Shown: positions 1,515 to 45,142 of the stretch, one piece after another
How positions within the stretch are numbered: position 1 is the stretch's first letter
Layout: each line of letters starts with the position of its first letter
DNA from: an uncultured Spirochaetota bacterium
Lineage (GTDB): Bacteria > Spirochaetota > UBA4802 > UBA5550
Reading direction: 5' to 3'
Assembly: GCA_937872225.1 (NCBI GenBank)
Contig: CALMRZ010000046.1
Location: 62,001-126,000, forward strand
DNA length: 64,000 bases
The notes under the pieces: model-generated
The model's database searches: none
The model's input: the letters and a program-made list of their open reading frames with translations, nothing else
What the model was told of the DNA's origin: nothing
Made by a program: the position numbers and the translations under genes

Positions 1515-4050
<2,536 letters not shown>

Positions 4051-4124
4051 GGATAGGGCACCTCTTGTTACGGGTATTAATGTATCATGGAGACGGCGCT
4101 CCGTCCATACAAAAATCATTCACG

Positions 4125-4595
4125 TTATTTATTTTTTACCGGGTGGCCGCCGCGGCCATCGAAACGGCTCTTTTTTTCGCACCGGGCAATGCAGTTGTCC
4201 CTGACCGGGCCGGTGAGGACATTGCACCTGGTTTCGCAGGGTGACGGACTCTCGTGAGGAACGGTTTCTTTTTTCTGGGGCGCTGCATATAGCTTATTGT
4301 CGAGACAGACGCGCCGGCACGTTATATTATCGATGCCTTTATACTGCTCGCAGGCCGATTCGCAATCGCGGATCTTCTTCTTAACCTGGTTTTCGCCTGA
4401 GGGGGCGTTCTTTTTCCTGGCGCTGACGCAGGTCCTGATGCACGTATAGCGGGCCTCGCCTTCCAGGACCGAGCACCGGGAATTGCAATCGCTCTCCCGG
4501 TCGGAGACGGAAGTGCCCCGCACGGCGGTAACCGTTGAAGGCGGCAGGAACAGCAGGGCTGCGGCAAGGAAAAGTAGTTGCGGCTTGTATATCAT
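4125..4595 (-). CDS. Secreted protein with three twin-CX3C repeats
   Basis: A 156-residue protein with a clear signal peptide (about 1-24, ending TVTA). The mature part has three copies of one pattern, CX3C-X10-CX3C: CNSRC/CIRTC, CESAC/CRRVC and CETRC/CIARC, separated by basic linkers. All twelve cysteines of the mature chain belong to the pattern, so each unit is probably a disulfide-clamped helical hairpin, as in proteins with twin CXnC motifs. GGAGG lies seven bases before the ATG. I recognise no named family. Co-directional with the DUF1554 lipoprotein downstream. Confidence 0.7.
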   Translation of the reverse strand: MIYKPQLLFLAAALLFLPPSTVTAVRGTSVSDRESDCNSRCSVLEGEARYTCIRTCVSARKKNAPSGENQVKKKIRDCESACEQYKGIDNITCRRVCLDNKLYAAPQKKETVPHESPSPCETRCNVLTGPVRDNCIARCEKKSRFDGRGGHPVKNK

Positions 4596-4631
4596 AACCC
4601 GACCTCCCCGGCGACCGGACCATGCGGAATT

Positions 4632-5648
4632 TCACTTTTCTCCGGCAATTCGCCTGAATAGTCTCAGAAGCATATCCGTGGTCAGCCTCAAACGTCCCGT
4701 GCGAAAAATTTTAAGCTTCCCCCGGTCATTGGTAATTGTATACGAGAACAGGTACTGCTTTTCGCCCCCGCTGCCTGCGGCAAGGCTTCCGTAGCGCAGG
4801 TCATTGAAAATAAGCTTCCCTTCTCTTTTATCTATTGTGTAGAAATCCTTGGCAAAGGAAATAAGCTTTCTGATCCCGGTGTATCCGCTGAGATCGCTGA
4901 TGTATTCATGGTTTTTCCTGTCTTTTTCAAATCGGATATCATCATTGCCGTCAAGGTTCGAATAGTAGCCGGTATAGAAGAATTCATCGCCTTCGGCGAT
5001 GCCGACCCACAGGAAATTCGTAAAGGGCATTGGTGTTGTCATGAGCCTGACGAATCTTATTTTTTGATCGGCAAGGCTGTCCCTGAAAACTGTTTCAACA
5101 TGGTCCTTGTTTAACACCGTCGCGGCAAGATAGACCAGGCCCAGGGCAAGACCGGCGGCGAAAAGCCTCTTCCGGATATTTTCATTCTGCCTGAAGAGGA
5201 ATAGAGACAGGGCTGAAAAGAGTACCGGTATGGAAAACAGGGGGTCAACAACGGCGATCGTCCCCCAGGCGACCCTGCAGTTGTTGAATGGAAGAAAAAT
5301 CCTGGTCCCATAGGACGTGAAGCAATCGAGAAAAATGTGCGACAGGATACCCAGGAGGACAATAAAAACCCAAGTCGGGAAGCTATGGGAAATCCCCTTT
5401 TTCGGATCGAGACGATAGATCACGAGGCCCAGCAAGGGGGCTGTAAGCGCGGCAAAGACAATTGAATGGGTGAAGCCGCGGTGGATATCCAGCTGCGACA
5501 TCGGGCCCAGGAACAATGTCGGAATAATGTCGATATCTGGCAGGGCCCCGGCGAGGGCGCCGCAGGCGGGAGCGCGCAGGTCGCTTTTTTTCCCGGCTGT
5601 TAATCCTGCGACCGCGGCTCCCAGGGCGCTGTGGGTAAGAGGATCCAT
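4632..5648 (-). CDS. DUF457/YdjM-family membrane metal-dependent hydrolase
   Basis: A 338-residue membrane protein. The first 200 residues hold about five hydrophobic helices and the family motifs: MDPLTHSALG at the N-terminus, PDIDII, HRGFTHS and LSHIFLDCFTSYG, a set of His and Asp residues thought to bind metal. The C-terminal 130 residues are soluble and probably face the periplasm. Members such as E. coli YdjM are membrane-bound predicted hydrolases with unknown substrate. Six bases separate it from the ABC permease upstream, so it likely shares that transcript. Confidence 0.85.
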   Translation of the reverse strand: MDPLTHSALGAAVAGLTAGKKSDLRAPACGALAGALPDIDIIPTLFLGPMSQLDIHRGFTHSIVFAALTAPLLGLVIYRLDPKKGISHSFPTWVFIVLLGILSHIFLDCFTSYGTRIFLPFNNCRVAWGTIAVVDPLFSIPVLFSALSLFLFRQNENIRKRLFAAGLALGLVYLAATVLNKDHVETVFRDSLADQKIRFVRLMTTPMPFTNFLWVGIAEGDEFFYTGYYSNLDGNDDIRFEKDRKNHEYISDLSGYTGIRKLISFAKDFYTIDKREGKLIFNDLRYGSLAAGSGGEKQYLFSYTITNDRGKLKIFRTGRLRLTTDMLLRLFRRIAGEK

Positions 5649-5654
5649 GGCTGT

Positions 5655-6689
5655 CTATTCCTTCTGCCACTTGAAAAGGAGCGATCCCGCGACAAGGAAA
5701 ACCAGGGACATGGCGGCTAGGATGAGTATATTCGATTGCACCTCCCTGATCCCGGCGCCGTCGTTCATTATCTTTCTGGCGGCGTCGATCATCTGCGTCA
5801 GGGGGAATATCCGGGAGGCTTTCTGCACCCAGGGCGCGGTGCCTTCGAGGGAAAACCAGACTTCGGACAGGAACATCATGGGCCAGGTGATCAGGTTCAG
5901 TATTCCCCCGGCGAACTCCTCGCTGCCGCTGCGGGACGCCACGACCAGCGCGAGGGATATCATGCTGAAACCGCCCAGGCAGACCACCAGGAGAAGGGTC
6001 AGGTAGGAGCCGCGCACATGGAACCCGTACAGGAGTTTGCAGCCGATGAATACGATGGCCGTTGTGAGAAGGAGAAGATACATGCGTGACATGATCTGGG
6101 ACGTCAGAAACTCCCAGGGCCTGAGGGGCGTAACGCTCATGCGCTTCAGGACGCCGTTCTTGCGGTAGGTGACGACCACGTATCCGACGCCGAAGAGGGC
6201 GCTGAACATCATGTTCATTCCCAGTATGCCCGGGAAAAGCCACTCGATGTAGGGGATCTCGACGCCGCGGACCTCCTCCTTCCTCAGGTCAGTTCCGGCG
6301 GTGTCGGCGCTGGACTTGAGAAGACGCTCGGCGACATAGCCTTTCGGCGAGGTCCTGCTGGTCCAGTATGTCCCCTTGTCCCGGTCAATAAGCAGGTCTA
6401 TCCTGTGGTGGAGGAGCTTGGGGACGGCCTGGTCTTCCGACTTGAAGGGGATGAAATCAATATATTTCATTTTTTTGAAGCTCTCCATCTGCGCGTCACC
6501 GGGGGCTTCGGCCGACGGCCTGGACCCGATTATTCCTACCTTGTAAAGGACCTGCCGATCGTCGTTGAAAATAAGGCTGAACCCCACAATGACGAAGACA
6601 GGGAAAAGAATGTTCCACGCAAAGGCGGAACGGTCCCGTAAAAATTCAAGGTTCCTGGCCTTGAACAGAGTCCATATCCTGTTAAACAT
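5655..6689 (-). CDS. ABC-2 type transporter permease
   Basis: A 344-residue inner-membrane permease. One helix near residues 24-43 is followed by an extracytoplasmic domain (about 45-165) and then five to six helices, including the conserved PWEFLTSQ stretch, the layout of ABC-2 exporters. GGAGG precedes the ATG by five bases. It forms an exporter with the ATPase encoded just upstream. The substrate cannot be read from sequence; relatives move drugs, lipids or polysaccharides. Confidence 0.9.
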   Translation of the reverse strand: MFNRIWTLFKARNLEFLRDRSAFAWNILFPVFVIVGFSLIFNDDRQVLYKVGIIGSRPSAEAPGDAQMESFKKMKYIDFIPFKSEDQAVPKLLHHRIDLLIDRDKGTYWTSRTSPKGYVAERLLKSSADTAGTDLRKEEVRGVEIPYIEWLFPGILGMNMMFSALFGVGYVVVTYRKNGVLKRMSVTPLRPWEFLTSQIMSRMYLLLLTTAIVFIGCKLLYGFHVRGSYLTLLLVVCLGGFSMISLALVVASRSGSEEFAGGILNLITWPMMFLSEVWFSLEGTAPWVQKASRIFPLTQMIDAARKIMNDGAGIREVQSNILILAAMSLVFLVAGSLLFKWQKE

Positions 6690-6734
6690 TGCAGGCCTCC
6701 AGTATGGGGAGCTTCCGTCTCATGGCGCCGATCC

Positions 6735-7619
6735 TCATGCCCTGAGCTCGTGGCCGGTCATTTTGAGGAACAGGTCTTCCAGGTTCTGGTTGCGCACGTT
6801 CATGGTCGAAAGATCGATGCCGAGTTCCACGAGCCGGTACAGGCATTCATTGGGCGACGGTGTCTGGATTTCAACGTTATTATCAGTGCGGAACCACCGG
6901 CAGGGAAGGTCCGCGAGGACGGCGTCATCGATCTGCGCGTGAAGGCTTATGGTTACGCCGGCGCAATGTTCGTCAAGGAGTCCCCGGGGCGTCCCCATGG
7001 CGATTATTTTACCATGATCTATGATGCCGATGCGATCACAGAGTATTTCGGCCTCTTCCATGTAATGCGTTGTCAGGACGATGGTCCTGTTCATCGACTT
7101 GATCCGGCGCACGATGTCCCAGAGGTGACGGCGCGCCTGGGGGTCGAGACCCGTGGTGGGTTCGTCAAGGAAAAGAAGTTCCGGGTCGTTGGCCAGCGCC
7201 ATGGCCAGAAGGAGGCGCTGTTTCTGCCCCCCGGAAATCTTTCGGTTGTCCCGCTTCAGGATTTCTTCCAGGCGGCAGGTATCGATAAGGTATGACAGGT
7301 CGGCCCTTCGGTCATACAGGTTGCGGAAGGTCAGGAGGGTCTCCTTCACCGTGAGGAACTGGGGAAGCTCGGTGTTCTGGAACTGGATGCCCACCTCGTT
7401 TTTAAAGGAATTGCCCCGCCGCTTGCCTTTGTAGAAGACTTCTCCCGCCGTGGGCTGGAGTATTCCTTCGATGACCTCGATGGCCGTTGTTTTGCCGGCA
7501 CCGTTCGGTCCCAGGAGGCCGAAGCAGGTGCCCGGCTCAATGGAAAAGCTTATGCCGTCCACCGCCCTGACTTCGGGGAAATGCTTTGCCAGTTCTTTAA
7601 CTTCGAGGATCGGTTCCAT
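6735..7619 (-). CDS. ABC-2 transporter ATP-binding protein
   Basis: The 294-residue ATPase partner of the downstream permease. Walker A GPNGAGKTT, signature ISGGQKQR (variant of LSGGQ), Walker B LLFLDEPTTGLD and the switch histidine in LTTHYMEEAE are all present, so it should hydrolyse ATP. A C-terminal extension of about 80 residues follows. I chose the ATG at 7619 (MEPILEVKEL), where similarity begins, over an in-frame TTG at 7676. Confidence 0.93.
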   Translation of the reverse strand: MEPILEVKELAKHFPEVRAVDGISFSIEPGTCFGLLGPNGAGKTTAIEVIEGILQPTAGEVFYKGKRRGNSFKNEVGIQFQNTELPQFLTVKETLLTFRNLYDRRADLSYLIDTCRLEEILKRDNRKISGGQKQRLLLAMALANDPELLFLDEPTTGLDPQARRHLWDIVRRIKSMNRTIVLTTHYMEEAEILCDRIGIIDHGKIIAMGTPRGLLDEHCAGVTISLHAQIDDAVLADLPCRWFRTDNNVEIQTPSPNECLYRLVELGIDLSTMNVRNQNLEDLFLKMTGHELRA

Positions 7620-7683
7620 GTCGTTTCTGCGCCGCGTTCCGGATATGTATGATTTGTGACGTGCGGGCACGTGCAATGTTACT

Positions 7684-8919
7684 TTAAAAAATTACGGCCA
7701 TCACAGAGTCGATTTCTGCAAGAATACGTTTAAGCTCGGCCGCATCGGATTTTGTCATCAGGTTTCTAGTTCGCATGAGTCTGCCGAGCGAATCGTATAT
7801 TCCGTCAAAGGCCTGGCCTATGCTCAGGTCATTGTCCATGCTGGTTTCGAATTTCCGCTGCATATCGCCGATGATGTCCCTGACGAGCCTGTCCGGCCTG
7901 CCGGGATTCGACCGCGGAGGCACGCAGAGCTTCCGCGCCAGAAGCCTGAAATCCTCCATCTTGTCGCAGGCCTTTTTGAATTTATCAGCGGTGAAGTTAA
8001 GCTTTTTCCGGTAATGCGTGTAAAAGAGAAAGAACCTGAGGTCGCGGTTCCCGCAGCCATGGCGGTAGATGTCCTCGGGATATATGATGTTTCCGCGGCT
8101 TTTTGACATCGGTTTGCCGTTGACGACAAGGTGGGCGCCATGCAGGTAGTAGTTCGCGAAGGTGGCCCCGGTGTAGGATTCAACGATGGCGATGTTGTAA
8201 TCATGATGGCGGTAGATGTTGTCTATGCCGCCGCAGTTGATGTCGATCATCCCGCCCAGGTGCTGGATTATCACCGAGGGGTCCTGGATGTTCCATGAGG
8301 GACGCCCCTTGCCTACCGCGGAGTCCCACCATTTGATGTCGCCGTCACGGTATCCGTGCCAGAGTATGAAATCCCCCAGGTTCCACCGGTTGCCGTTGTA
8401 GGTGTCGCGCCGGAATCGTATTGTTCTCTTCGGCCAGCGTTTCATATCAAGGCCATAGAGCTTGCCGAAGCCGCTGAATTTCATCGGGTCGAAGAAAATG
8501 TCGACGCCATGGCGATAGGCATGGCCGGAGCCGATGAGTTTTTTAATGAGCTTTCCGGCGCACTGGACGCAGAGGGACGACCGCTGGACCTTTTCGGGGA
8601 GAAGAATGTTTAGGGACTTCATTTCCGAAAGAAATATTTTCTCAATATCGCCGGTAAGCTCATCGATTTTCTTTTTTTTCTTTATGGCTTCGAGGATCGT
8701 CTTGTCCTCTATGTCGGTGAGGGGTATGGCCCGGTCAACCCGGTATCCTTTATAACGCAGGTAGCGGACAAGGATGTCCTCGTACATGAAGGTCCGGTAA
8801 TTACCTATGTGGGGGCGGCGGTAGATCGACGGGCCGCAGGTGAATATTTTTACCGTCCTGCCGTTCCGCGGCTTGAATTCCTCCAGCGACCGTGACATCG
8901 TGTTGTAGAGTTTCAGCAT
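7684..8919 (-). CDS. Cysteinyl-tRNA-synthetase-like protein with altered zinc site
   Basis: A 411-residue class I synthetase clearly related to CysRS: FTCGPSIYRRPHIGN (Cys28, HIGN) and GKPMSKSRGN for KMSKS. True CysRS holds the substrate thiol with zinc bound by Cys28, Cys209, His234 and Glu238 (E. coli numbering). Here Cys28 remains, but WHIEC has become WNIQD (Asp213) and HHENE has become HHDYN (Asn242), so two of four ligands are lost. The first Lys of KMSKS is Pro. The C-terminal anticodon-binding region is short. It probably ligates something other than cysteine to tRNA-Cys, or is a free-standing ligase. I did not see a normal cysS in the window. Confidence 0.85.
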   Translation of the reverse strand: MLKLYNTMSRSLEEFKPRNGRTVKIFTCGPSIYRRPHIGNYRTFMYEDILVRYLRYKGYRVDRAIPLTDIEDKTILEAIKKKKKIDELTGDIEKIFLSEMKSLNILLPEKVQRSSLCVQCAGKLIKKLIGSGHAYRHGVDIFFDPMKFSGFGKLYGLDMKRWPKRTIRFRRDTYNGNRWNLGDFILWHGYRDGDIKWWDSAVGKGRPSWNIQDPSVIIQHLGGMIDINCGGIDNIYRHHDYNIAIVESYTGATFANYYLHGAHLVVNGKPMSKSRGNIIYPEDIYRHGCGNRDLRFFLFYTHYRKKLNFTADKFKKACDKMEDFRLLARKLCVPPRSNPGRPDRLVRDIIGDMQRKFETSMDNDLSIGQAFDGIYDSLGRLMRTRNLMTKSDAAELKRILAEIDSVMAVIF

Positions 8920-8943
8920 AGAAAATCCTGTCAGTAATTACCG

Positions 8944-9007
8944 GCATCAGGGGCACGCTCTAGCGCCCCTGATGCAATAGTACAATTGACGGTTAAATTG
9001 TCAATTG
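8944..9007 (-). promoter_or_regulatory. Promoter of the CysRS-like gene with two inverted repeats
   Basis: Minus-strand TTGACA (9004-8999), a 16-base spacer and TACTAT (8982-8977) form a good promoter 58 bases before the gene. CAATTGAC (8983-8990) and GTCAATTG (9000-9007) form a perfect 8-base inverted repeat over the -35 box and spacer. A second perfect repeat, 11-base arms at 8944-8954 and 8965-8975, sits where transcription should start. The first repeat looks like an operator. The second could be another operator or a leader hairpin. Confidence 0.6.
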
Positions 9008-9152
9008 AAAGTGATGGGAGGCGCAGAATACCCAAATAGTTATTGACTTTTCCCGGATGATTGATGGTTACCTGTTGATTGATTAATAATCTATCAGGAC
9101 TATTTTCCCGGCTCACGGCAGCGGGACAGTGCCGAATGGTAGAGGTTGTGCT

Positions 9153-10223
9153 ATGTCAAAAACATTATCGTTCATGGCCGGGCCGCGGGCTCTCGGGATC
9201 ATCCGGGATGAAGGGCTCAATCCCGATCGAGTCAGCGTCATGGCCGGAGCCGCCGGAGGCCCCAAGTGGCTTATCCTGGGCGGTATGGACCGTTTCCTTG
9301 CCGGAGAATTTTTCAGAGACAGGAAAAAGCCGCTTTACCTGGTGGGATCCTCCATCGGGACCTGGCGATTTGCCGCCATGGCCCAGAAAAAACCTGTCGA
9401 AGCCATAGATGCTTTTGAAAAGGCGTACCTTAAGCAGTCATACTCCCGGGTGCCCACCACGGACGAGGTAACCGGCGAGAGCCTGTCGATACTCGATGAC
9501 TATCTCCCCGACAGCAGGATATCCCAGATACTCAACCATCCCTTTTATCGCCTCAATATACTGGCGGTTAAATCAAGGCATATCCTGGCCGTTGAGTCGC
9601 GTCCGGCCATAGCCGCGGGCATGGCCGCGGCGACACTCACCAATATAATATCGCGAAGATCCATGGGGCTCCACTTTGAGCGCACCCTTTTTTATGACCG
9701 CAGGGATATCGCGCCGTTTCATGACCTGAAGGGCTTTCCCATCCACAGGGTGGAGCTGACTCATGATAATCTTAAACCGGCCATCATGGCATCGGGTTCG
9801 ATCCCGATGGTGATGAAGGGGGTCACCGGGATCCCGGGCGCGCCGGAAGGGACATACCGCGACGGCGGCATGATAGATTATCACCCGGACATTCCCTTCG
9901 ATCCAGATCCGGAGCACATCGTGCTCTATCCTCACTACACGGGCTCCATTATCCCCGGATGGCTTGACAAGCACGTTCCCTGGCATCGCGCCCAACGAAA
10001 GCACCTGGACAACGTGCTGATCGTATGCCCGTCGAAAGACTTTATCGCCGGCCTGCCCTACGGCAAGGTCCCGGACCGGAACGATTTCATGAAGTTCAAG
10101 GGAAGGGATAACGAGCGGCTTGGTTACTGGCGCAAGGCCATTGAAGGCGGGAAAATACTCGGGGAAGAGCTTTGTGACGCCGTGGCTTCGGGGAAAATCC
10201 GGTCGATTGTGTCTGAATATTGA
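9153..10223 (+). CDS. Patatin-like phospholipase family protein
   Basis: A 356-residue patatin-fold acyl hydrolase. It has the oxyanion-loop glycines (GAAGGPKW), the nucleophile elbow GSSIG (GxSxG) and the catalytic aspartate in RDGGMIDYH. No signal peptide is visible, so it should act in the cytoplasm or at the inner face of the membrane, cleaving acyl esters of lipids. I chose the ATG at 9153 with AGAGG upstream. It is divergent from the CysRS-like gene and may share its control region. Confidence 0.88.
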   Translation: MSKTLSFMAGPRALGIIRDEGLNPDRVSVMAGAAGGPKWLILGGMDRFLAGEFFRDRKKPLYLVGSSIGTWRFAAMAQKKPVEAIDAFEKAYLKQSYSRVPTTDEVTGESLSILDDYLPDSRISQILNHPFYRLNILAVKSRHILAVESRPAIAAGMAAATLTNIISRRSMGLHFERTLFYDRRDIAPFHDLKGFPIHRVELTHDNLKPAIMASGSIPMVMKGVTGIPGAPEGTYRDGGMIDYHPDIPFDPDPEHIVLYPHYTGSIIPGWLDKHVPWHRAQRKHLDNVLIVCPSKDFIAGLPYGKVPDRNDFMKFKGRDNERLGYWRKAIEGGKILGEELCDAVASGKIRSIVSEY

Positions 10224-10243
10224 TATCGGGCAGAACCGGCAAT

Positions 10244-10278
10244 AAAAAGAGCCCCTGCCCGGTGATCGGACAGGGGCT
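10244..10278 (-). terminator. Rho-independent terminator of the START-domain gene
   Basis: Arms 10250-10260 and 10268-10278 form an 11-base stem with one mismatch (AGCCCCTG core). On the minus strand it is followed by CTTTTTATT. It ends the minus-strand gene upstream and lies after the patatin gene, where the plus-strand side lacks a good U-tract. Confidence 0.8.
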
Positions 10279-10302
10279 TCTGTACTATACCATAATGTTA
10301 TT

Positions 10303-11028
10303 TTACTTGCCGCCCTTCAATGCCGGATAGCCGGCCTTGATGGCGTCATTGATCATCTTGTTGTATTTCGACGTCTTGGCGCTTTCTATATATTTCGGGT
10401 GTTTGACCATCAGCTTCATTTTTTCCAGGGACTTTGCAGGAATGCCCTTGATTGTCGAATTGGCTATGCCGACCGGCACGCCTTTGCCGAGGTCAGGATC
10501 AATCGTGAAGGAAACCCTGGTATTTTCCCGGTCCACCCATTCCAGCAGGAACTCGCAGCTGAAGTGCGGCATCCTGACGTATCCTTTTTTTGAGTCATAG
10601 GCTATGTCATCTGTCGAAAAGGCTTTTATGAGACACCATCCCTTCGGATAATTGAGGGTGACATCTGATTTGAGAACCATGTCCCTGTCGGTGAGGATCG
10701 GAACGTGCTGCTGGAACCAGAAAACAAAGACGTCGGCCTGGTCGTTGACGACCTTCAGCATTTTCGTGTCTTTGCAGTCGGACATCCATGCCGGATAATT
10801 GATGATGTCCCGGATAACCATCCCCACGACTTCCATTTTCGCCGGGATAACGCAGACAGCCTTCGCGGCAATGTATTCTTTCCCGGGCGACGGGCTGGTG
10901 AACACCTGGCAGCCGTTATTTGAGCCGGCCAGCTTCCACTGATATTGCACGCCGCTCTGTGAGCCCGTTGTCAAAATTGTCACAAAGAACAACAGGGCCC
11001 CGATGATAACCGTATTTTTTTTTAACAT
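10303..11028 (-). CDS. Exported START-domain (SRPBCC) lipid-binding-like protein
   Basis: A 241-residue protein with a hydrophobic N-terminus (MLKKNTVIIGALLFFVTIL), probably a signal peptide or anchor, then a START-type domain: VWxxxx-like WKLAGSNNGCQVFTS start, DIINYPAWMSDCKDTKML, LTDRDMVL, RMPHFSCEFLLEW and a long C-terminal helix GIPAKSLEKMK. START domains form a cavity for lipids or other hydrophobic ligands; the ligand is unknown here. GGAGG lies five bases before the ATG at 11028, which decides the start. It has its own promoter and terminator, so it is monocistronic. Confidence 0.82.
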   Translation of the reverse strand: MLKKNTVIIGALLFFVTILTTGSQSGVQYQWKLAGSNNGCQVFTSPSPGKEYIAAKAVCVIPAKMEVVGMVIRDIINYPAWMSDCKDTKMLKVVNDQADVFVFWFQQHVPILTDRDMVLKSDVTLNYPKGWCLIKAFSTDDIAYDSKKGYVRMPHFSCEFLLEWVDRENTRVSFTIDPDLGKGVPVGIANSTIKGIPAKSLEKMKLMVKHPKYIESAKTSKYNKMINDAIKAGYPALKGGK

Positions 11029-35849: not shown

Positions 35850-37568
35850 TCACGTTCTCGGCTGGCGCATATCGTTCTTGTCGCCATGATCGATGGCGCT
35901 CCCGTTTTCCGCGTAATGGCCGAGATAAAAAAGGGCGCGGAATATCCGGTATGTTACCCTGTCGAGCCACCGGATCGCTTCGATCTGCTTCATTGCCGTG
36001 TCCGCATCTAGTTCTCCGGAGGCGGTCCTGACCATTATTTCCTCGCGCTGTTTTTCGCGCAGTTCCTTCATATATTGGGATGTTTTTTCCATTTCGTCGA
36101 CTGACTCCTTTTTTTTGAGCCCTTCGAGCATAATGAGGACCGGCCCGACGTTTTCAGACAGGGTAACCGCGAGATGGTTGAGATGCATGTCGTTATGCAT
36201 GGTAGACAGCTTTTCAAATTCCCAGCAGGCAATGATAAGCTGGTCCACGTGGTCGAGTGCGTGCATGACGGCCATCAGCCTGTTGCTGTAAACCGTGGAA
36301 GCGCCCTTGATTGTTTTGATCTGGCCGAGGAAGCGCCGCGTTTCGTTCAGGGCCTTTCCGACGTCCCTGAGGCGGCTTTTTATGACCGGCGATATCGTCT
36401 CGCTTTCGATCATTACCCTGACCACGTCAATGGACGCAATGGTTATGTCTATGATGGTCCTTCTCACGGTTTCAATGGCTACGGTGGGCACGTTCCTGAT
36501 TGAATTGTCAAGGTATCGTGTAAGGTACGGACCGCGGTCCGGGATAATCCATGCCAGGAATCTGGAAAACACGTCCAGGAACGGCAGGATTATGCATATG
36601 CCCAGAAGGTTGAAGGCGCTGTGAAACCCGGCAAGAGTTATGGTGTTATCCATAACGCCGCAAGTATGGACGATATACTGGATGAAATTAATAAAAAATG
36701 GGAGAATTACAAAGGCAACGATGCCGGTTATTACATTGAACATGATATGCGCCACGGCAGTCCTTTTTGCTGAAGGCGTGGCTCCGAAGGCGGCGAAAGC
36801 GGCAGTTAAGGTCGTGCCTATGTTCTGGCCAATAACCAGTGCCGCACCCTGGGCCAGGTCAATGGTGCCGGTGCTGAGGGCGGCCATGGTTGTGGCGACC
36901 GCCGCGCTCGACGCCTGCATGATCACGGTCATGAGGATGCCCACGCCGACCAGGAGAAGCCTGTTCAGTATGCCCGTGCCGGCAAAATCGCTCAGGTCAA
37001 GGTGCACCGACATGGTTTTCATGCCGGTCTGGAGAACGTCGATGCCGAAAAATATCAGGCCGAAACCGGCAATCACCAGCCCGGAGCTTGCGATGCGGTC
37101 CTTCCCCAAGAGCCTGAGGATGGCGCCGACGCCGACAATGGGGAGCGCCACGGCGCCGAGTTTGAGCTTCATCCCGAGGAGGGAGACGATCCAGCCGGTG
37201 CTGGTCGTGCCGAGATGGGCGCCGAGAATGACGCCCAGCGACTGCCGGAAGGTGATGAGTCCCGCGCTCACAAAGCCGATGGTCGTTATAATCGTCGCAT
37301 GGGAAGACTGCAGCAGGGCGGTGATAAAAGCTCCGGATGTAATGGAAGAAAACGTTCCGCCGGTTAATTTACTGAGGGCGCGCCTGAGCGTATCGCCGGC
37401 CAGCGATTTCATACCTTCGGTCATGAGTATCATGCCGAGGATGAAGAGGCCGATACCGCCGATTAATGATGTTAGCACAATACTGTCCATTTCGATTGAA
37501 AATGAAGGAACCGCACCGCTGAAATCGATAAGATCACTGCTTGCATCAACGTCAATTGCAGCGGACAT
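35850..37568 (-). CDS. Na/Pi-cotransporter-family protein with PhoU-like C-terminus
   Basis: A 572-residue NptA-type symporter. Both inverted repeats carry the QSS-type signature: LLQSSHATIITT (about 88) and IMQASSAAVATTMA (about 217), inside eight to ten membrane helices. The last 200 residues form a cytoplasmic PhoU-like helical domain. It should bring phosphate in with sodium. The start could also be the ATG at 37490. Good Shine-Dalgarno bases are lacking at both. Confidence 0.9.
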   Translation of the reverse strand: MSAAIDVDASSDLIDFSGAVPSFSIEMDSIVLTSLIGGIGLFILGMILMTEGMKSLAGDTLRRALSKLTGGTFSSITSGAFITALLQSSHATIITTIGFVSAGLITFRQSLGVILGAHLGTTSTGWIVSLLGMKLKLGAVALPIVGVGAILRLLGKDRIASSGLVIAGFGLIFFGIDVLQTGMKTMSVHLDLSDFAGTGILNRLLLVGVGILMTVIMQASSAAVATTMAALSTGTIDLAQGAALVIGQNIGTTLTAAFAAFGATPSAKRTAVAHIMFNVITGIVAFVILPFFINFIQYIVHTCGVMDNTITLAGFHSAFNLLGICIILPFLDVFSRFLAWIIPDRGPYLTRYLDNSIRNVPTVAIETVRRTIIDITIASIDVVRVMIESETISPVIKSRLRDVGKALNETRRFLGQIKTIKGASTVYSNRLMAVMHALDHVDQLIIACWEFEKLSTMHNDMHLNHLAVTLSENVGPVLIMLEGLKKKESVDEMEKTSQYMKELREKQREEIMVRTASGELDADTAMKQIEAIRWLDRVTYRIFRALFYLGHYAENGSAIDHGDKNDMRQPRT

Positions 37569-37784
37569 AACAAAATAATTACACAGTCATATTAAATAAA
37601 TGAAAATGATGTTTATTTGCGCAATAACATTATTTGTTGATGACAATTATTTTTTAATTGTGATTGTTGAAGCAATACTTATCATGAAATATTAATTGCA
37701 GTGAAAGCTTCAATCGCTTGTTGAAAATGACGGTGCGGAAAATTTAACATTGACAGGAGATGATGTCTCATCGATCGATATATC

Positions 37785-38678
37785 ATGAATAAGTCCTTCT
37801 CAATATTCAATATCGAACTGACAAACTATTGCCCCATGAAGTGCATAATGTGCCCCCGGACCAATAATATGACGCGGGACCGGGGATATATGGAACTGGA
37901 TCTTTTCGAGAAAGCGATAGACGAGATATCCCTTTTGCCTCCCCCGCCGGAGGGTGAAATAGTATGGCTCCACCATTTTGGTGAAAGCCTGATGCACAGG
38001 GATTTCGGAAGATGCATCGCCTATGCCTCCGGCCATGGAATAAGGACCGGCCTATCGATAAACCCGATCATGCTCACGGATGAAATCATCGAAGACCTCG
38101 TTATGTCAGAGCTTTCGGTACTGTATATATCGCTGGACGGACATGATGATGAATCATTCCGGCGCATACGGGGGATCCCTGACGCGTACGAACTGTCCCG
38201 GGAGCGGTTGCAGAAGTTTCTTAAAATTAAAATCGGCAGGGGTTGTCCAATTACGGTTATCCTTTCAATGGTTGATTTCGAAATGAATCGCGCAAGCATC
38301 GATACGGCGAGGAACCGCTGGGAAGCGACGCCCGGCATAGACCGGTTCCTGGCGAAAAGCTTCACCACCTGGGACGGAAGCGCAGCCGATGTCAGTCAAT
38401 ACGCGTCAGTCGGTAGCACAGTCGACCGGTCCAGGGTGCGATGCTCCTGGCCATTTGAAAGGATGACCATCACCTGGGATGGCGACGTGGTTCCGTGCTG
38501 TTTCGACTATGATAAGAAGTACGTCCTCGGTTCGTTGCGAACAATGACGCTGGCTGAAATATGGACCGGGGAACCTTTGAGGCGGCTCAGGGACGAGTTC
38601 ATCACCAACAGGGTTGTGAACCGCCTCTGCGCAAACTGCGAAAGGCTGTACATGCCGGCGCACTTGGTTAAATTGTAA
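37785..38678 (+). CDS. Radical SAM protein with SPASM-like C-terminus
   Basis: A 297-residue radical SAM enzyme with CPMKCIMC near residue 16 and a C-terminal cysteine-rich region (RCSWPF near 222, VVPCCFDYDKKYVLGSL near 239, LCANCE near 285), the pattern of SPASM auxiliary clusters. Such enzymes modify peptides or small molecules. No precursor peptide gene is visible nearby. GGAG lies 30 bases upstream, so the start is not firmly set. Confidence 0.85.
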   Translation: MNKSFSIFNIELTNYCPMKCIMCPRTNNMTRDRGYMELDLFEKAIDEISLLPPPPEGEIVWLHHFGESLMHRDFGRCIAYASGHGIRTGLSINPIMLTDEIIEDLVMSELSVLYISLDGHDDESFRRIRGIPDAYELSRERLQKFLKIKIGRGCPITVILSMVDFEMNRASIDTARNRWEATPGIDRFLAKSFTTWDGSAADVSQYASVGSTVDRSRVRCSWPFERMTITWDGDVVPCCFDYDKKYVLGSLRTMTLAEIWTGEPLRRLRDEFITNRVVNRLCANCERLYMPAHLVKL

Positions 38679-38748
38679 TAATTAATTGACATATACGAAC
38701 GCTCCTGTATATCGAAGACCACTATGTCTGATTAATCTGTGAGGCGTT

Positions 38749-40044
38749 ATGATAGACCGTTACTCGAGAAAAGAGATTTCCCGGATTTGGGATCTCGAAA
38801 ACAAGTTCAGGATCTGGCTGGACATTGAATTGGCCGTCTGTGAGGTCCAGGCCCAGGACGGGATCGTGCCGCAAGCCGATCTTAACACGATCAAGGAAAA
38901 GGCTTCTTTCAATGTGGACCGCATCCTTGAAATAGAAAACCAGGTGCATCATGACGTCATAGCTTTTCTCACGGCGGTCGGTGAAAACGTCGGCCCTTCC
39001 AGCCGCTTCATACATTACGGCCTCACATCCAGCGATATAGTCGACACGGCCCTGTCGATACAGCTCAGGCAGTCCGGAGAGATTATCATCGCGGGTCTGG
39101 ACCGTCTCATAGATATATTGAAGGTTCTTGCCCTCAAGTACCGGGACACCCCCTGCATGGGCAGGTCCCACGGGGTGCATGCCGAACCAACGACCTTCGG
39201 CGTGAAAATGGCCCTCTATTACGAAGAATTCAGGCGCAACAGGGACCGTATCTTAAAGGCTGTTGACGCGGTGTCATACGGCAAGTTTTCCGGCGCGGTC
39301 GGCACCTTCAGCAATATCTCCCCCGATATCGAGAAGCGTGTCTGCGACCTCCTGGGCCTCAAGCCTGACCCGATATCAACGCAGGTCATCCAGCGCGACC
39401 GCCATGCCGAGTACATGGCCGCCCTGGCAATCTGTGCCGGGACCCTTGACAAGCTTGCCACTGAAATCCGGCACCTCCAGCGGACGGAAGTACGAGAAGT
39501 CGAGGAGCCGTTCCAGAAAGGCCAGAAGGGCTCTTCTGCCATGCCCCACAAGCGCAACCCGATACTCTGCGAGCGGGTAACCGGCATCTCGCGGGTCATC
39601 AAGGCGAACATGAACGTCGCCCTTGACGACATGACCCTGTGGCACGAGCGGGATATATCCCATTCATCCGCCGAGCGCATCATATTCCCCGATTCAACGA
39701 TTGCCCTCGATTACCTTGTCCACCGCATGAATTTCGTAATGGAAAATCTGCATGTCTACCCGGAAAACATGCTGGATAACATTAACAGGACCGGCGGCCT
39801 CTTCTACTCCCAGAGCCTGCTCCTTGCCCTGGTGGAAAAAGGCCTCTCGCGCGAAGAATCATATAAAATAGTTCAGGACATGGCCATGAGGGTCTGGGCA
39901 CGCGAAGGAAGCCTCCTTGAACTTTGCAGAAAAAACGCGGCGGTCTCCGGCAGAATTACTGAAGATGAACTCAAGTCGATTTTTGATCTTCAGCGTTACC
40001 TGAAAAACATCGATTTTATTTATAAAAAAATCGGGTTGTCATGA
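38749..40044 (+). CDS. purB: Adenylosuccinate lyase
   Basis: A 431-residue fumarase-superfamily enzyme that acts twice in purine synthesis, cleaving SAICAR and adenylosuccinate. Signatures: RYSRKEISRIWD at the start, HYGLTSSDIVDTA, MGRSHGVHAEPTTFG with the catalytic histidine, and the flexible loop GSSAMPHKRNP with the catalytic serine. GAGGCGTT precedes the ATG. Confidence 0.96.
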   Translation: MIDRYSRKEISRIWDLENKFRIWLDIELAVCEVQAQDGIVPQADLNTIKEKASFNVDRILEIENQVHHDVIAFLTAVGENVGPSSRFIHYGLTSSDIVDTALSIQLRQSGEIIIAGLDRLIDILKVLALKYRDTPCMGRSHGVHAEPTTFGVKMALYYEEFRRNRDRILKAVDAVSYGKFSGAVGTFSNISPDIEKRVCDLLGLKPDPISTQVIQRDRHAEYMAALAICAGTLDKLATEIRHLQRTEVREVEEPFQKGQKGSSAMPHKRNPILCERVTGISRVIKANMNVALDDMTLWHERDISHSSAERIIFPDSTIALDYLVHRMNFVMENLHVYPENMLDNINRTGGLFYSQSLLLALVEKGLSREESYKIVQDMAMRVWAREGSLLELCRKNAAVSGRITEDELKSIFDLQRYLKNIDFIYKKIGLS

Positions 40045-40257
40045 TCTCCGGCAACACGCGCACTATCCAGCCATGATATTTCGCGATACGGCATCTGGCC
40101 AGATCGACGACGTCGGCGAACCGGCGCATTAATCATGAACCGGGTGAAAATTCTTGATGGATCGGGCGGCAGGGATTACCGGCCCACCGGGATTCCGGTA
40201 ACAGCGATATATCCAAAATAATATTTGACAATGAACTGATATGATCTCAATTTGCTT

Positions 40258-40286
40258 TTGACAATATTGGAAACGATTGATAAATT
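40258..40286 (+). promoter_or_regulatory. Promoter of the AsnRS-like gene
   Basis: TTGACA (40258-40263), a 17-base spacer and TAAATT (40281-40286) end 21 bases before the ATG at 40307. This placement also rules out the in-frame TTG at 40277 as the start. A second TTGACA lies at 40225-40230. Confidence 0.6.
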
Positions 40287-40306
40287 ATTTTGAACAGGAT
40301 ACGCGC

Positions 40307-41542
40307 ATGGAAGACAATATCAAGAAGATAGGAGAAAGCCTGTACAGGTTCCAATCGGCGATCAATGAAAGCGGATCGACCATGGAAGACTACATCCGCG
40401 AACATTACCTTAACAAATGGATGTCCGACGAGCTTTACCATGCTTCAGCCATACGCACCAGTTTCATCAATGCCGCGACCCAGTTCATGATCAGCGAGGG
40501 GCTTTTCAACATTGAAAGGGTCATGCTGAGCATAATTACCGATCCCCTGGCACATGACATCGAGCACACGCCCTCCATACCCTACAAGGGGCACACCTAC
40601 CTGACGACGCACAGCATGATTTACAGCAAGTTCCTTGCCTGTTCAAATCCGAATATCAGGGGCATCTTCGTGGACTCGCCCAATATACGCCTGGAAATCG
40701 AGAGCCCGATGCGTCTGCAGAGAGGGAGGTATCTGGCGGATTTTTCACAGCTGGACGTTGAGCTCCGTCGCAACAGGGGCCTCACGCTTGACGATTACTA
40801 CTACAACTCGAAGAAAGTTACCGAAATACTGAATGAAGACATGAAGAAGATCATGAATTTCTTCGAAAAAATGATCATTGCCGGGTGCGAGGAGATAAAC
40901 AAAAAGAACGCCGACAGCCTCAAAAAGCTCGGTGTCGTTCTTGAAGTGCCGAAGTCGCCGTTCCCGGCATACCCCAAAGACGACTGTGTCAGGAAATATG
41001 GGCCCCGCGTTTTCGAGGAAAAGGTCGGCGAGGAAACCGCATCGCAATTTTTCTGGATTACCGGTCTCCTGCGCGAGAATTACGACCTCGTGTATCCATA
41101 CCTGCTGCCCCATGAAAAGAAAGTCGACATGGAGAAAATATCCTCATCGAACATATTCAATTATGATATTTGCGCGAAGAGCATAGACGCGAATACAGGC
41201 AAACATTCATCGGCGAAGGAGATACTTTCCGGCGCCATCCGCGAATGGCTGTTCGAGCCGATCATTGAGCGCATATGCGACAACAAGGTCCTCCCGGCCC
41301 GCCCCATTATTAAAGACGGGAACATTGAGAACATCAACGAACTGGGCGGCTACGGCCCATTCCTCTATTTCGCGTCCATGAAGGATGCCGACGGCAAACC
41401 CCTGTTCCCCGAAACGATGGGCGGCGGAATAGGCGTCGAGAGGACGCTCTACGCGATACTGCGCGGGGAAAAGATCAAGAAGATCGACGATATAACCTTT
41501 TTCGGGAAAAATCCGGACTCACATCCATTATATCTATTCTGA
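40307..41542 (+). CDS. AsnRS/AspRS-like class II ligase core without anticodon-binding domain
   Basis: A 411-residue protein. It has class II motif 2 (SPNIRLE...RYLADFSQLDVE, about 124-152, with the conserved R-x-E) and motif 3 (GGGIGVERTLYAILRG, about 372-387, with the ATP-binding arginine), arranged as in AsnRS/AspRS. The N-terminal OB anticodon-binding domain is missing. The substrate-pocket sequence SGQLE of AsnRS reads HSMIY. It is probably a free-standing ligase or amide-forming enzyme, in the way archaeal asparagine synthetases descend from AspRS. AGGA is eight bases before the ATG. asnS follows 107 bases later. Confidence 0.75.
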   Translation: MEDNIKKIGESLYRFQSAINESGSTMEDYIREHYLNKWMSDELYHASAIRTSFINAATQFMISEGLFNIERVMLSIITDPLAHDIEHTPSIPYKGHTYLTTHSMIYSKFLACSNPNIRGIFVDSPNIRLEIESPMRLQRGRYLADFSQLDVELRRNRGLTLDDYYYNSKKVTEILNEDMKKIMNFFEKMIIAGCEEINKKNADSLKKLGVVLEVPKSPFPAYPKDDCVRKYGPRVFEEKVGEETASQFFWITGLLRENYDLVYPYLLPHEKKVDMEKISSSNIFNYDICAKSIDANTGKHSSAKEILSGAIREWLFEPIIERICDNKVLPARPIIKDGNIENINELGGYGPFLYFASMKDADGKPLFPETMGGGIGVERTLYAILRGEKIKKIDDITFFGKNPDSHPLYLF

Positions 41543-41649
41543 TTCCATCCGGGCACGGCCTGGAGAGGGCGGAGCGGGACGGCGTCATCAGCAACAAGGA
41601 ACGTGAGCGGCGCCGTCACGAAAACCGTCAGACATAGTGAGGGATAACA

Positions 41650-43035
41650 ATGAAACCTGGTATCAAGCAGATACTGACAATGCCGGGAAACGGCGAACTC
41701 ATTACGGTGGAAGGATGGATCAGGACTAAACGTGATTCCAAGGGCGTCACCTTCCTTGAGATCAATGATGGATCGACCCTGAAGAACCTGCAGGTTGTCA
41801 TTGCAGATACCTTCCCCGATTACCAGTCAATAACACGGGAACTAACCACGGGATCAAGCGTAACCATAAAGGGGAAACTGATAGAATCGCCCGGTAAAGG
41901 GCAGGCCGTTGAGGTCGTCGCCGGTGAAATAACCATACTCGGGACAGCCTCGCCGGAAGAATACGCCCTCCAGAAAAAGCACCATACCTTCGAATTCCTT
42001 CGAGAGATAGCCCACCTGCGGCCGCGGTCAAATTCCTTCGGCGCCGTGGCCAGGGTCAGGAGCGCAATGAGTTTCGCGGTACACACCTTTTTCCAGGAGC
42101 GGGGCTTTGTATACGTCCACACACCGATAATCACCGGCAGCGACTGCGAGGGCGCCGGGGAAATGTTCCAGGTCACCACCCTGCCCCTTGATAATATCCC
42201 TCTTAAAGACGGGAATATTGATTTTTCCCAGGATTTTTTCGGTAAAAAAGCGGCCCTAACCGTCAGCGGCCAACTTGAAGGAGAGACGTATGCCTGCGCG
42301 TTGAAGAATATATACACCTTCGGCCCTACCTTCAGGGCTGAAAATTCAAACACCTCGCGTCACCTTGCCGAATTCTGGATGATTGAACCTGAAATGGCCT
42401 TTTGCGATATACACGGCAACATGGACATTGCCGAGGAGTTCCTGAAATACATCTTCCAGTATGTTCTTGACGCATGCCCTGATGACATGGATTTCTTCAA
42501 CACGAGGATAAGCAAGGGGCTGATAGACAACCTGCAGCACATCATCAAAAGCCGGTTCAAGCGGATAACCTATACCGAGGCTGTCGAAAGCCTGGTCGAT
42601 GCCAGGGCAGATTTTGAGTTCCCCGTTGAATGGGGCATCGATCTCCAGAGCGAGCATGAAAAGTTCCTCACCGAGCAGGTGTACAGGCTCCCGGTAATCA
42701 TAACGGACTACCCGAAGCAGATTAAAGCCTTTTACATGAAGATAAACGACGACAACAGGACCGTGCGGGCCATGGATATACTGGTGCCGCGTCTCGGCGA
42801 GATTGTCGGGGGCAGCGAGCGTGAAGCGGATTTGACCAAGCTCAAAAACCGGATCGTCGAATGCGGCCTGGACCCGGACGATTACTGGTGGTATCTTGAT
42901 TTGCGCCGTTTCGGCACGGTCCCCCACGCCGGCTTCGGCCTCGGATTTGAACGGGTGATCCAGTTCGTGACGGGCATGCAGAACATCAGGGATGTCATCC
43001 CTTTTCCGCGGGCAGTCAAGACCCTCGAGTTCTGA
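41650..43035 (+). CDS. asnS: Asparaginyl-tRNA synthetase
   Basis: A 461-residue synthetase: an N-terminal OB fold (about 15-115, [23 protein letters not shown]), then the class II core with TVSGQLEGE, motif 2 [26 protein letters not shown] and motif 3 [15 protein letters not shown]. It charges tRNA-Asn with asparagine. GAGGG precedes the ATG. A related core-only protein is encoded immediately upstream. Confidence 0.95.
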
Positions 43036-43063
43036 TCAGTGCTCGCGCAGTCTCTGGAAACCG

Positions 43064-44146
43064 CTACATCGCGAATGGCAGCATGAGCTGACGCTCCGCG
43101 TCTCCTGTTTCCGCCGCGTCAAGGTTTGACAGTGATATGCCCAGGAGCCTGACTTTTTTGATCCCCGCTTCGGTCCTGCCCAGGAGTGTCACGGCATGCA
43201 TGTGAATCATGTCGGTGTTGTTGATGGCATCATCCAGGGTAATGCTTCTGCTGACACTGGTAAAATCCGCGAATTTGACTTTAAGTGTTATCGTCCGTCC
43301 GCTGGTTTCATGATGCCCCAGGGCGAGGGCGACCCTGCCGGCAATCGTTTTCAGTATCCTCCCCATTTCACCGACATCATCAATATCCCTTTCGAAGGTT
43401 TCTTCCTTGCCGATTGATTTGCGCACATAATCTGTTTCGACCGGGCGTTCGTCTATGCCATGGGCGATATCGTAATAGTACTCGCCGGTTTTACCGAAAA
43501 GACTCACCAGGTCGTCAAGCGATAACTTTTTCAGGTCATGCCCGGTTTGTATGCCCAGTTGGACCATTCTTTTTTCGGTGACCCTGCCTATGCCGTAAAA
43601 TTTTCCGATCGGAAGCCGGTCAATGAAACCGTCGGCTTGTTCAGGAGTTATAACGGTCAGCCCGTCAGGCTTGTTGTAGTCAGAGGCCACCTTGGCGAGG
43701 AACTTGCAGTACGATACCCCGGCTGAAGCGGTCAACCGAGTCCTCTGGAATATCCTGTTTCTTATTTCCGTGGCGATGCGCGTTGCGTATGGCCCACCGA
43801 TCTTGTTCTCCGTGACATCCAAGTATGCCTCGTCCAGGGACATCGGCTCCACCAGGTCGGTGTAATCATGGAAAATTTCATGGATCTGCTCTGAAACGGC
43901 GTGGTACTCGTCAAAATTGCCATGGATAAAAATGGCATGGGGACAGAGACGATATGCAATGCTTGAAGCCATGGCGGAATGGATACCGTATTTGCGGGCT
44001 TCATAGGAACATGCCGCGACAACGCCCCTGCTCCCGGGATTGCCGCCGACAATGACCGGCTTGCCTTTGAGCGAGGGATTGTTTCTCTGTTCAACGGAAG
44101 CATAAAAAGCATCCATGTCGACATGTATTATTTTCCTATGCTCCAT
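43064..44146 (-). CDS. dinB: DNA polymerase IV
   Basis: A 360-residue Y-family translesion polymerase. It has the catalytic aspartate blocks IIHVDMDAFYASVEQ and MSLDEAYLDVT, the YSYEARKYGI-type steric region (CSYEARKYGI), and the finger HhH motifs (FYGIGRVTEKRMVQLGI). The C-terminal QLMLPF is a typical beta-clamp-binding peptide. I chose the ATG at 44146 (MEHRKIIHVD). The promoter ends only a few bases upstream, so the leader is very short. Confidence 0.94.
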   Translation of the reverse strand: MEHRKIIHVDMDAFYASVEQRNNPSLKGKPVIVGGNPGSRGVVAACSYEARKYGIHSAMASSIAYRLCPHAIFIHGNFDEYHAVSEQIHEIFHDYTDLVEPMSLDEAYLDVTENKIGGPYATRIATEIRNRIFQRTRLTASAGVSYCKFLAKVASDYNKPDGLTVITPEQADGFIDRLPIGKFYGIGRVTEKRMVQLGIQTGHDLKKLSLDDLVSLFGKTGEYYYDIAHGIDERPVETDYVRKSIGKEETFERDIDDVGEMGRILKTIAGRVALALGHHETSGRTITLKVKFADFTSVSRSITLDDAINNTDMIHMHAVTLLGRTEAGIKKVRLLGISLSNLDAAETGDAERQLMLPFAM

Positions 44147-44153
44147 GTGCAAC

Positions 44154-44181
44154 ACTATACTATACAAACATATATAGTCAA
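44154..44181 (-). promoter_or_regulatory. dinB promoter
   Basis: Minus-strand TTGACT (44181-44176), a 16-base spacer and TATAGT (44159-44154). Transcription would begin close to the ATG at 44146. I see no LexA-type TTTG-N5-CAAA box here. Confidence 0.6.
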
Positions 44182-44315
44182 CATAAATTTAGTATATCTG
44201 ATGGCTGGTCATATTGTATATTAAATAATTAGTATTTATATTTATAAAAATTGACAAGGCATATACTGCTGCATAAATGTAATAAACTGTTTTATTATAA
44301 ATTGGAGAAACTAAC

Positions 44316-44903
44316 ATGCTTGACAGAGTAGATGCCCACGGCCTTGCCTGCCCACAGCCGGTTATCAACGCTTCAAAAGCCCTTGAAACCAATGACAGTA
44401 TCATCGTCATCGTTGATAATCAAACGGCCCTTGAAAACATTAAGCGTCTCGCAAAAAGCAAGGAGCGCTCTGTGTCGTGCGAGATGAAATCAGACGGCAT
44501 CTATATAGTGCTGGAAAAGAAGATGGCTATAGAGACTGATTTAGAAAATAATCATGAGGGAATACGAAACCACGCGTCCCGTGATGAACGGGTACTCGTA
44601 ATTTCGCAGGAAGTCATGGGCCGGGGTGACAATGCCCTCGCCGTCATTCTAATGAAAAGCTTTTTCCATACAATTGCTGAAACAGTACCTGCGCCTGATG
44701 CCATTATTTTATTTAACAGCGGGGTAAAATTGCTTGTTGATGGTTCGGAAGTTCTTGAGGATATAAGGCTACTTGAAAAAAGGGGACTTAGAATACTGGC
44801 CTGCGGGACATGCCTTGATTATTTTAAATTAAAAGACAGGCTCCGGGCCGGTCATGTCTCGAACATGTACGAAATCAAGGAATTGATGTTAACAGCATCA
44901 TAA
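44316..44903 (+). CDS. yedF: YedF-like sulfurtransferase (TusA + DsrE domains)
   Basis: A 195-residue protein: an N-terminal TusA domain with the conserved cysteine in GLACPQPVI (about residue 12), then a C-terminal DsrE-like domain (about 90-195, VLVISQEVMGRGDNALAVILMKSF, ACGTCLDYF). This two-domain form is annotated as selenium-metabolism protein YedF and travels with DUF3343, which follows 11 bases later. GGAG is eight bases before the ATG. Confidence 0.9.
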   Translation: MLDRVDAHGLACPQPVINASKALETNDSIIVIVDNQTALENIKRLAKSKERSVSCEMKSDGIYIVLEKKMAIETDLENNHEGIRNHASRDERVLVISQEVMGRGDNALAVILMKSFFHTIAETVPAPDAIILFNSGVKLLVDGSEVLEDIRLLEKRGLRILACGTCLDYFKLKDRLRAGHVSNMYEIKELMLTAS

Positions 44904-44914
44904 GTAATTAATAT

Positions 44915-45142
44915 ATGATACTTCAGAATTCCTACCGCGTGGTTTTGTTTAAATCGGTAAACCAGACCATGTGGGCCGAAAAAATATTGAGGGAAAAAGG
45001 TATTCCGCATAAACTCATACCAGTGCCGCGGCAGATAAGCTCCGATTGCGGCGTCTGTTTGCGTGTTGAGTCCGGCCAGGAGGAGCATGTGCGGAACGTC
45101 CTCGTCAATGTGGAAGGCTTCATGGAAATAGTGCCCCTGTGA
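44915..45142 (+). CDS. DUF3343 protein
   Basis: A 75-residue protein (VVLFKSVNQTMWAEKILREKGIPHKLIPVPRQISSDCGVCLRV), characteristic of DUF3343, with a CGVC pair at residues 45-48. Members accompany YedF and selenium-dependent molybdenum hydroxylases. Here it forms a two-gene operon with yedF; no selD or selA is in the window. Confidence 0.88.
   Translation: MILQNSYRVVLFKSVNQTMWAEKILREKGIPHKLIPVPRQISSDCGVCLRVESGQEEHVRNVLVNVEGFMEIVPL

What the first reader, a model, noticed from the sequence alone, without database searches (positions are those of the whole stretch)
40307..41542. Stand-alone AsnRS-like core protein next to asnS
Class II motifs 2 and 3 are intact but the anticodon-binding OB domain is absent and the amino-acid pocket SGQLE reads HSMIY. 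AspRS/AsnRS-derived paralogues are known as asparagine synthetases in archaea; this one may be a new ligase.
Basis: partly seen in the sequence, partly recalled or inferred. Interest (0 to 1): 0.6.

Follow-up and report, generated by a model that had tools for sequence, protein, structure and literature searches.

The report
Unannotated bacterial ammonia-dependent asparagine synthetase
A spirochaete gene next to the asparagine-tRNA ligase gene belongs to a widespread, unnamed bacterial family whose closest characterised relative is the archaeal enzyme that makes asparagine from aspartate and ammonia, and its usual neighbours are ammonia-assimilation genes, so it is most likely a bacterial version of that enzyme rather than a new kind of ligase.

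Summary
Window 40307-41542 (+) encodes a 411-aa stand-alone class II synthetase core with no OB domain, 107 bp upstream of asnS (41650-43035). The "HSMIY" pocket is not new: it is the signature of archaeal asparagine synthetase (HSMILHK in Pyrococcus). The telling residue is the lysine two positions on (HSMIYSK): it aligns with the AspRS lysine and is absent from AsnRS.

By profile, fold and tree, the closest characterised protein is archaeal asparagine synthetase A (AS-AR). A tree joins the family to AS-AR at 100/100, and AU tests reject AsnRS or AspRS as sister.

At least 80 homologous loci occur in Spirochaetota, Desulfobacterota, Fibrobacterota, Planctomycetota, rumen bacteria and others. 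They share about 25% identity with AS-AR, carry about 100 extra residues, and the window protein scores far below NCBI's cut-offs.

Context points to asparagine made from ammonia: neighbours are asnS, AsnB or a GatA-AspRS fusion in spirochaetes, and glutamine synthetase, glutamate synthase, Amt or PII elsewhere. In another spirochaete, classical asnA fills the slot upstream of asnS.

Best reading: ATP + L-aspartate + NH3 -> L-asparagine, by a divergent bacterial clade of AS-AR. Catalysis is inferred, not shown. This is a new variant of a known kind.

The parts
40307..41542 (+). AsnA-like gene: 411-aa stand-alone class II (AspRS/AsnRS-type) catalytic core, predicted ammonia-dependent asparagine synthetase
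40535..40549 (+). residues 77-81 ITDPL: T78-D79-P80-L81 block shared with archaeal AS (SPITDPL), in place of the EGG-type loop of AspRS/AsnRS
40607..40630 (+). amino-acid pocket T101-H-S-M-I-Y-S-K108; K108 aligns with the AspRS and archaeal AS lysine; the AsnRSs have Gly/Leu here
40676..40762 (+). class II motif 2, S124-PNIRLE...DFSQLDVE152 (R128, F146, D150, E152 invariant)
41228..41248 (+). S308-GAIREW314; R312 aligns with the Arg of AspRS GGQR and archaeal AS GGEREW, candidate aspartate anchor
   Evidence: PMC3532385 for the two-arginine anchor
41420..41443 (+). class II motif 3, G372-GGIGVER379
41650..43035 (+). asnS, asparaginyl-tRNA synthetase (461 aa, with OB domain), the adjacent consumer of asparagine
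38749..40044 (+). purB, adenylosuccinate lyase, upstream neighbour; conserved here only within the same genus

Best explanation
The gene encodes an ammonia-dependent asparagine synthetase of the AsnRS-related (archaeal, AS-AR) type, from a divergent bacterial branch. The enzyme binds ATP in a class II synthetase active site, binds L-aspartate with K108 and R312 holding a carboxylate and motif 2 R128 at the reaction centre, forms beta-aspartyl-AMP and releases L-asparagine when ammonia attacks. [quoted passage not shown] In this spirochaete clade it would supply asparagine next to AsnRS; in other phyla it sits in ammonia-assimilation operons. Shown: homology, fold, conserved residues and gene neighbourhoods. 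Inferred: the reaction, the substrate, the roles of single residues and the use of free ammonia.
For: Closest solved proteins by sequence are archaeal asparagine synthetase A 3p8t and its homologue 1nnh, ahead of AspRS. All 48 members scanned hit NCBIfam 'asparagine synthetase A' models. The AlphaFold model (pLDDT 87.5, pTM 0.89) matches archaeal AsnA with AMP, Asn+AMP and Asp+ATP bound (3rex, 3rl6, 3reu) at E about 1e-20, TMt 0.82, 25% identity, ahead of AspRS/AsnRS at 12-17%. The tree joins family + AS-AR at 100/100; AU rejects family+AsnRS (p 0.0023) and family+AspRS (p 7e-5). TDPL, SMI..K, PNIRLE and G-x-RE[WF] are shared with AS-AR and not with AsnRS/AspRS. Context: asnS directly downstream in 11 of 16 loci of the spirochaete clade; GatA-ndAspRS fusion/GatCB close by in G010, G024, G028; AsnB adjacent in G028, L070 and L071. 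Elsewhere glutamine synthetase is immediately upstream on the same strand in 25 of 64 loci, and at least one of GS, GltB, GltD, Amt, PII or GlnD lies within 7 kb in 41 of 64. Classical asnA occupies the slot upstream of asnS in spirochaete G046. In 6 of 14 relatives with the gene, no AsnB or classical AsnA passes the cut-off.
Against: Only about 25% identity to AS-AR, and the window protein scores far under the curated NCBIfam cut-offs (128 vs 309 bits). A long stem (4.6 changes per site) leaves room for changed specificity. There are about 100 extra residues and a family-specific C-terminus (FGKNPDSHP instead of FPR). No complementarity with AsnB: the two co-occur more than expected in relatives (8/14 vs 6/45, Fisher p 0.002), and the host genome itself has AsnB and a GatCAB/ndAspRS route. 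Some lineages carry two paralogues. No activity has been measured.
Confidence: 0.76

Rival explanations
1. A ligase that activates aspartate (or a close analogue) but passes it to an amine other than ammonia, i.e. the new ligase of the first reader.
For: Long stem branch and large family-specific insertions and C-terminus; co-occurrence with AsnB; second paralogues in rumen genomes next to RmlD and a BACON-domain protein rather than N-assimilation genes.
Against: Pocket and motif residues match archaeal AS; no carrier protein, NRPS or natural-product genes were seen among the recurrent neighbours; the most frequent neighbours are GS, GOGAT, Amt, PII, AsnRS and AsnB.
Confidence: 0.12
2. A regulatory paralogue (as HisZ is for HisG) that senses aspartate/ATP/asparagine and tunes glutamine synthetase, GOGAT or AsnRS.
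For: Tight pairing with glnA/gltB in one group and asnS in another; precedent of regulatory aaRS paralogues (PMC9437257).
Against: All class II catalytic residues are invariant, which a pure sensor would not need; partners differ completely between clades (asnS vs glnA), including GS type I and type III, which argues for a shared metabolite rather than a shared protein partner.
Confidence: 0.07
3. A protein- or carrier-aminoacylating enzyme like EpmA/GenX.
For: EpmA is also a class IIb core without an OB domain (general knowledge).
Against: No hit of the window protein to EpmA/GenX models; nearest structures are AS, AspRS and AsnRS; no EF-P gene was identified among the annotated recurrent neighbours.
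Confidence: 0.03
4. A decayed AsnRS/AspRS duplicate without function.
For: Partial domain content compared with asnS.
Against: Full-length conservation across many phyla, mean column identity 69% in 48 sequences, invariant active site.
Confidence: 0.02

Closest known systems
Archaeal asparagine synthetase A, AsnRS-related (AS-AR; Pyrococcus abyssi 3p8t/3reu/3rl6, P. furiosus homologue 1nnh; NCBIfam PRK06462 models)
   Same: Stand-alone class IIb core without OB domain; TDPL, THSMI..K, SPNIRLE, F[ST]QLD, G-x-REW and GIGVER signatures; best fold match; clade support 100/100
   Different: About 25% identity, about 411 vs 294 aa, N-terminal helices, longer central region, C-terminus FGKNPDSHP; below NCBIfam cut-offs; found in bacteria; activity untested
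Classical bacterial AsnA (aspartate--ammonia ligase, TIGR00669)
   Same: Proposed reaction; class II fold; can sit directly upstream of asnS (G046)
   Different: No hit of the window protein to TIGR00669; a separate origin of classical and archaeal types is reported (PMC3532385)
AsnRS (asnS, TIGR00457) and archaeal-type AspRS
   Same: Homologous catalytic core, motifs 2 and 3
   Different: No OB domain; HSMIYSK instead of SGQLEGE or SPQLYKQ; AU test rejects either as sister
HisZ and EpmA (other stand-alone class II paralogues)
   Same: Paralogue of an aaRS without tRNA-binding domain
   Different: No model hit; active site of AS type; different genomic context

Membership tests
Archaeal-type asparagine synthetase (AS-AR) | Class IIb core with motifs 2 and 3, no OB domain | tested here: met
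   PF00152 only, no PF01336; motifs invariant in 48 homologues
Archaeal-type asparagine synthetase (AS-AR) | AS-specific pocket signature (TDPL, SMI..K, PNIRLE, G-x-RE[WF]) | tested here: met
   alignment; invariance
Archaeal-type asparagine synthetase (AS-AR) | Groups with AS-AR and not with AsnRS/AspRS | tested here: met
   100/100; AU p 0.0023 and 7e-5 against the alternatives; long branches are a caveat
Archaeal-type asparagine synthetase (AS-AR) | Fold closest to solved archaeal AS | tested here: met
   3rex/3rl6/3reu top hits, E about 1e-20
Archaeal-type asparagine synthetase (AS-AR) | Asp + ATP + NH3 -> Asn activity | not testable with these tools
   needs enzymology or complementation
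NCBIfam 'asparagine synthetase A' equivalogs (NF005052, NF005054) | Score above the curated cut-off | tested here: not met
   window protein 128 of 309 bits and 56 of 368 bits; all 48 members match, but the best E is 3e-44 against 2.7e-92 for the Methylobacter protein that just passes NF005054
Classical AsnA (TIGR00669) | Score to the TIGR00669 model | tested here: not met
   no match at E <= 0.001 for the protein or the genome
Asparaginyl-tRNA synthetase | OB anticodon-binding domain and SGQLE pocket | tested here: not met
EpmA/GenX | Match to the EpmA models | tested here: not met
   no match of the window protein

The most novel reading that the evidence does not exclude
A new aspartate-activating ligase family that joins aspartate to an amine other than ammonia, or that works with glutamine synthetase/GOGAT in a dedicated ammonia-channelling or regulatory complex, having diverged from archaeal asparagine synthetase.
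Probability: 0.15. Interest if true: 0.65.

Novelty: new variant of a known kind. Interest (0 to 1): 0.37.

Why it matters
If right, archaeal-type asparagine synthesis from ammonia is widespread in bacteria under a name that current models miss, often inside glutamine synthetase/glutamate synthase operons. That would fill a gap in asparagine pathway annotation (six of 14 relatives with the gene show no other recognised asparagine synthetase), would place a tRNA-synthetase-derived enzyme in primary nitrogen assimilation, and gives a second large clade for studying how a synthetase core was turned from activating the alpha- to the beta-carboxylate.

Tried and rejected
Rfam scan of 37000-45000 for a riboswitch or T-box: nothing. 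Complementarity with AsnB as evidence: rejected, the two genes co-occur positively. Mutual exclusion with classical AsnA: 0 of 14 genomes have both, but not significant (p 0.32). Plasmid collection: only one distant hit, a Methylobacter protein annotated asparagine synthetase A, used as an extra AS-AR row. NF005054 over the phylum: dominated by AsnRS and AspRS hits, so not usable for counting this family. The 2003 and 2011 papers on the archaeal enzyme are not in the held library, so its chemistry is cited through PMC3532385 and PMC9437257. Literature searches found no description of this bacterial clade, within open-licence papers only. 'Cluster 5' among the neighbours was an artefact of antisense ORFs in my ORF selection.

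Full report
What is there. Window 40307-41542 (+) is a 411-aa ORF. Pfam gives only the class II D/K/N core (PF00152), while the next gene, asnS at 41650-43035, has core plus OB domain and is a textbook AsnRS.

What it resembles. In solved structures the best sequence matches are the Pyrococcus asparagine synthetase A 3p8t and its homologue 1nnh (E about 1e-10 alone, 1e-17 to 1e-18 with a family profile), ahead of archaeal AspRS. The best NCBIfam model is asparagine synthetase A, below its cut-off, and all 48 family members hit the same models. The AlphaFold model (pLDDT 87.5) finds archaeal AsnA with AMP, Asn+AMP and Asp+ATP as its best matches. The low-confidence loops (82-86, 130-143) follow the TDPL block and lie in the motif 2 loop, so they are probably mobile active-site loops (inference).

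The pocket. Aligned, the window reads ITDPL / THSMIYSK / SPNIRLE / DFSQLD / GAIREW / GGGIGVER; Pyrococcus AS reads ITDPL / THSMILHK / SPNIRLE / EFTQLD / GGEREW / GAGIGVER. AspRS has EGG / SPQ(L/F)YKQ / GGQRIH, and AsnRS has EGAG or EGGA / SGQLEGE or SAQLYLE / GGS(E/Q)RE. Two arginines are reported to anchor aspartate in the archaeal enzyme (PMC3532385); R128 and R312 are the invariant candidates here. That AS-A enzymes activate the beta-carboxylate and transfer to ammonia comes from PMC3532385 and PMC9437257.

Phylogeny. Twenty-four family sequences form a 100/100 clade, joined to AS-AR (two Pyrococcus proteins and one Methylobacter protein) at 100/100. Joining the family to AsnRS or AspRS instead is rejected (p 0.0023 and 7e-5). 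Whether the family is sister to, or nested in, AS-AR is open (p 0.15). The stem is long, so long-branch effects are not excluded; the shared motif blocks and the fold ranking support the placement on other grounds.

Distribution. 14 of 59 genomes (the window's own and relatives) have it, by whole-genome search. A scan of 84,980 species genomes kept 80 loci at 44-85% identity from Spirochaetota, Desulfobacterota, Fibrobacterota, Planctomycetota, Bacteroidota, Gemmatimonadota, Neomarinimicrobiota and rumen bacteria. Several genomes carry two copies. The scatter suggests horizontal transfer (inference).

Context. In the spirochaete clade (16 loci) asnS is directly downstream in 11. In G010, G024 and G028 the gene is also divergent from a GatA-ndAspRS fusion followed by GatCB, and in G028 AsnB is convergent on the other side with its end about 20 bp away or less. 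In the other 64 loci, glutamine synthetase is the immediate same-strand upstream gene in 25 (type I mostly, type III in L035 and L051), glutamate synthase large subunit is immediately downstream in nine, and any of GS, GltB, GltD, Amt, PII or GlnD lies within 7 kb in 41 (representatives confirmed). With only a few such genes among several thousand per genome, these counts are far beyond chance, although related genomes are not independent. In L070 and L071 AsnB follows. In G046, in which this gene was not found, classical asnA (TIGR00669, 359 bits) sits 14 bp upstream of asnS: the same slot filled by another type of asparagine synthetase.

Pathway. Of 14 genomes with the gene, six (G001, G005, G010, G015, G022, G031) have no AsnB or classical AsnA over cut-off. 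Conversely 33 of 45 without it lack all three, so absence patterns alone prove nothing, and AsnB co-occurs positively. The host genome has AsnB (next to gltD) and a GatCAB/ndAspRS route as well.

Conclusion. The best-supported mechanism is ammonia-dependent asparagine synthesis through beta-aspartyl-AMP (0.76). Homology, fold, conserved residues and context are shown; activity is inferred. The finding is a new, unannotated, divergent variant of a known enzyme kind, of moderate interest.

Noticed in passing
L099 184-3069 and 3083-4852 (G000 contig C33, same genome as the window): A single 961-aa ORF fuses GatA to an archaeal-type non-discriminating AspRS, followed by a 589-aa ORF with an apparent GatC-like N-terminus fused to GatB: a possible Asn transamidosome in two chains. 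The GatA-AspRS fusion was confirmed by BLAST in G010, G024 and G028, and ORFs of 966-1116 aa with AspRS matches occur in G001-G004 and other spirochaetes. Possibly more novel than the finding itself.
   Followed up: partly
L103 (G028 C58) 2293-10743: Asparagine island: GatCB, GatA-ndAspRS fusion, AsnA-like and AsnB within 8.5 kb, i.e. several routes to asparagine or Asn-tRNA side by side.
   Followed up: partly
L100 1617-4042 (G046 C2): Classical asnA 14 bp upstream of asnS in a spirochaete in which the AsnA-like gene was not found.
   Followed up: yes
L084, L086, L088, L090, L091: Second AsnA-like paralogue (about 400 aa) in rumen bacteria, about 30 bp upstream of an ~870-aa protein with a BACON-like domain and near RmlD; may have a different role from the gltB-linked copy in the same genomes.
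   Followed up: no
L095-L098: Most divergent members (44-47%) in Treponema-like bacteria, with a radical SAM protein directly upstream in L096 and L097 instead of N-assimilation genes.
   Followed up: no
L028, L030: Contigs labelled Proteobacteria and Thermodesulfobacteriota carry AsnA-like plus asnS at 70-75% identity to the spirochaete pair: misbinning or recent transfer.
   Followed up: no
window 41543-41649: GACGGCG...CGCCGTC inverted repeat in the gap between the AsnA-like gene and asnS, without a T run; possible mRNA structure, not tested.
   Followed up: no
window 44316-44903: YedF selenium-metabolism protein (TIGR03527, 194 bits); the genome may use selenium.
   Followed up: no
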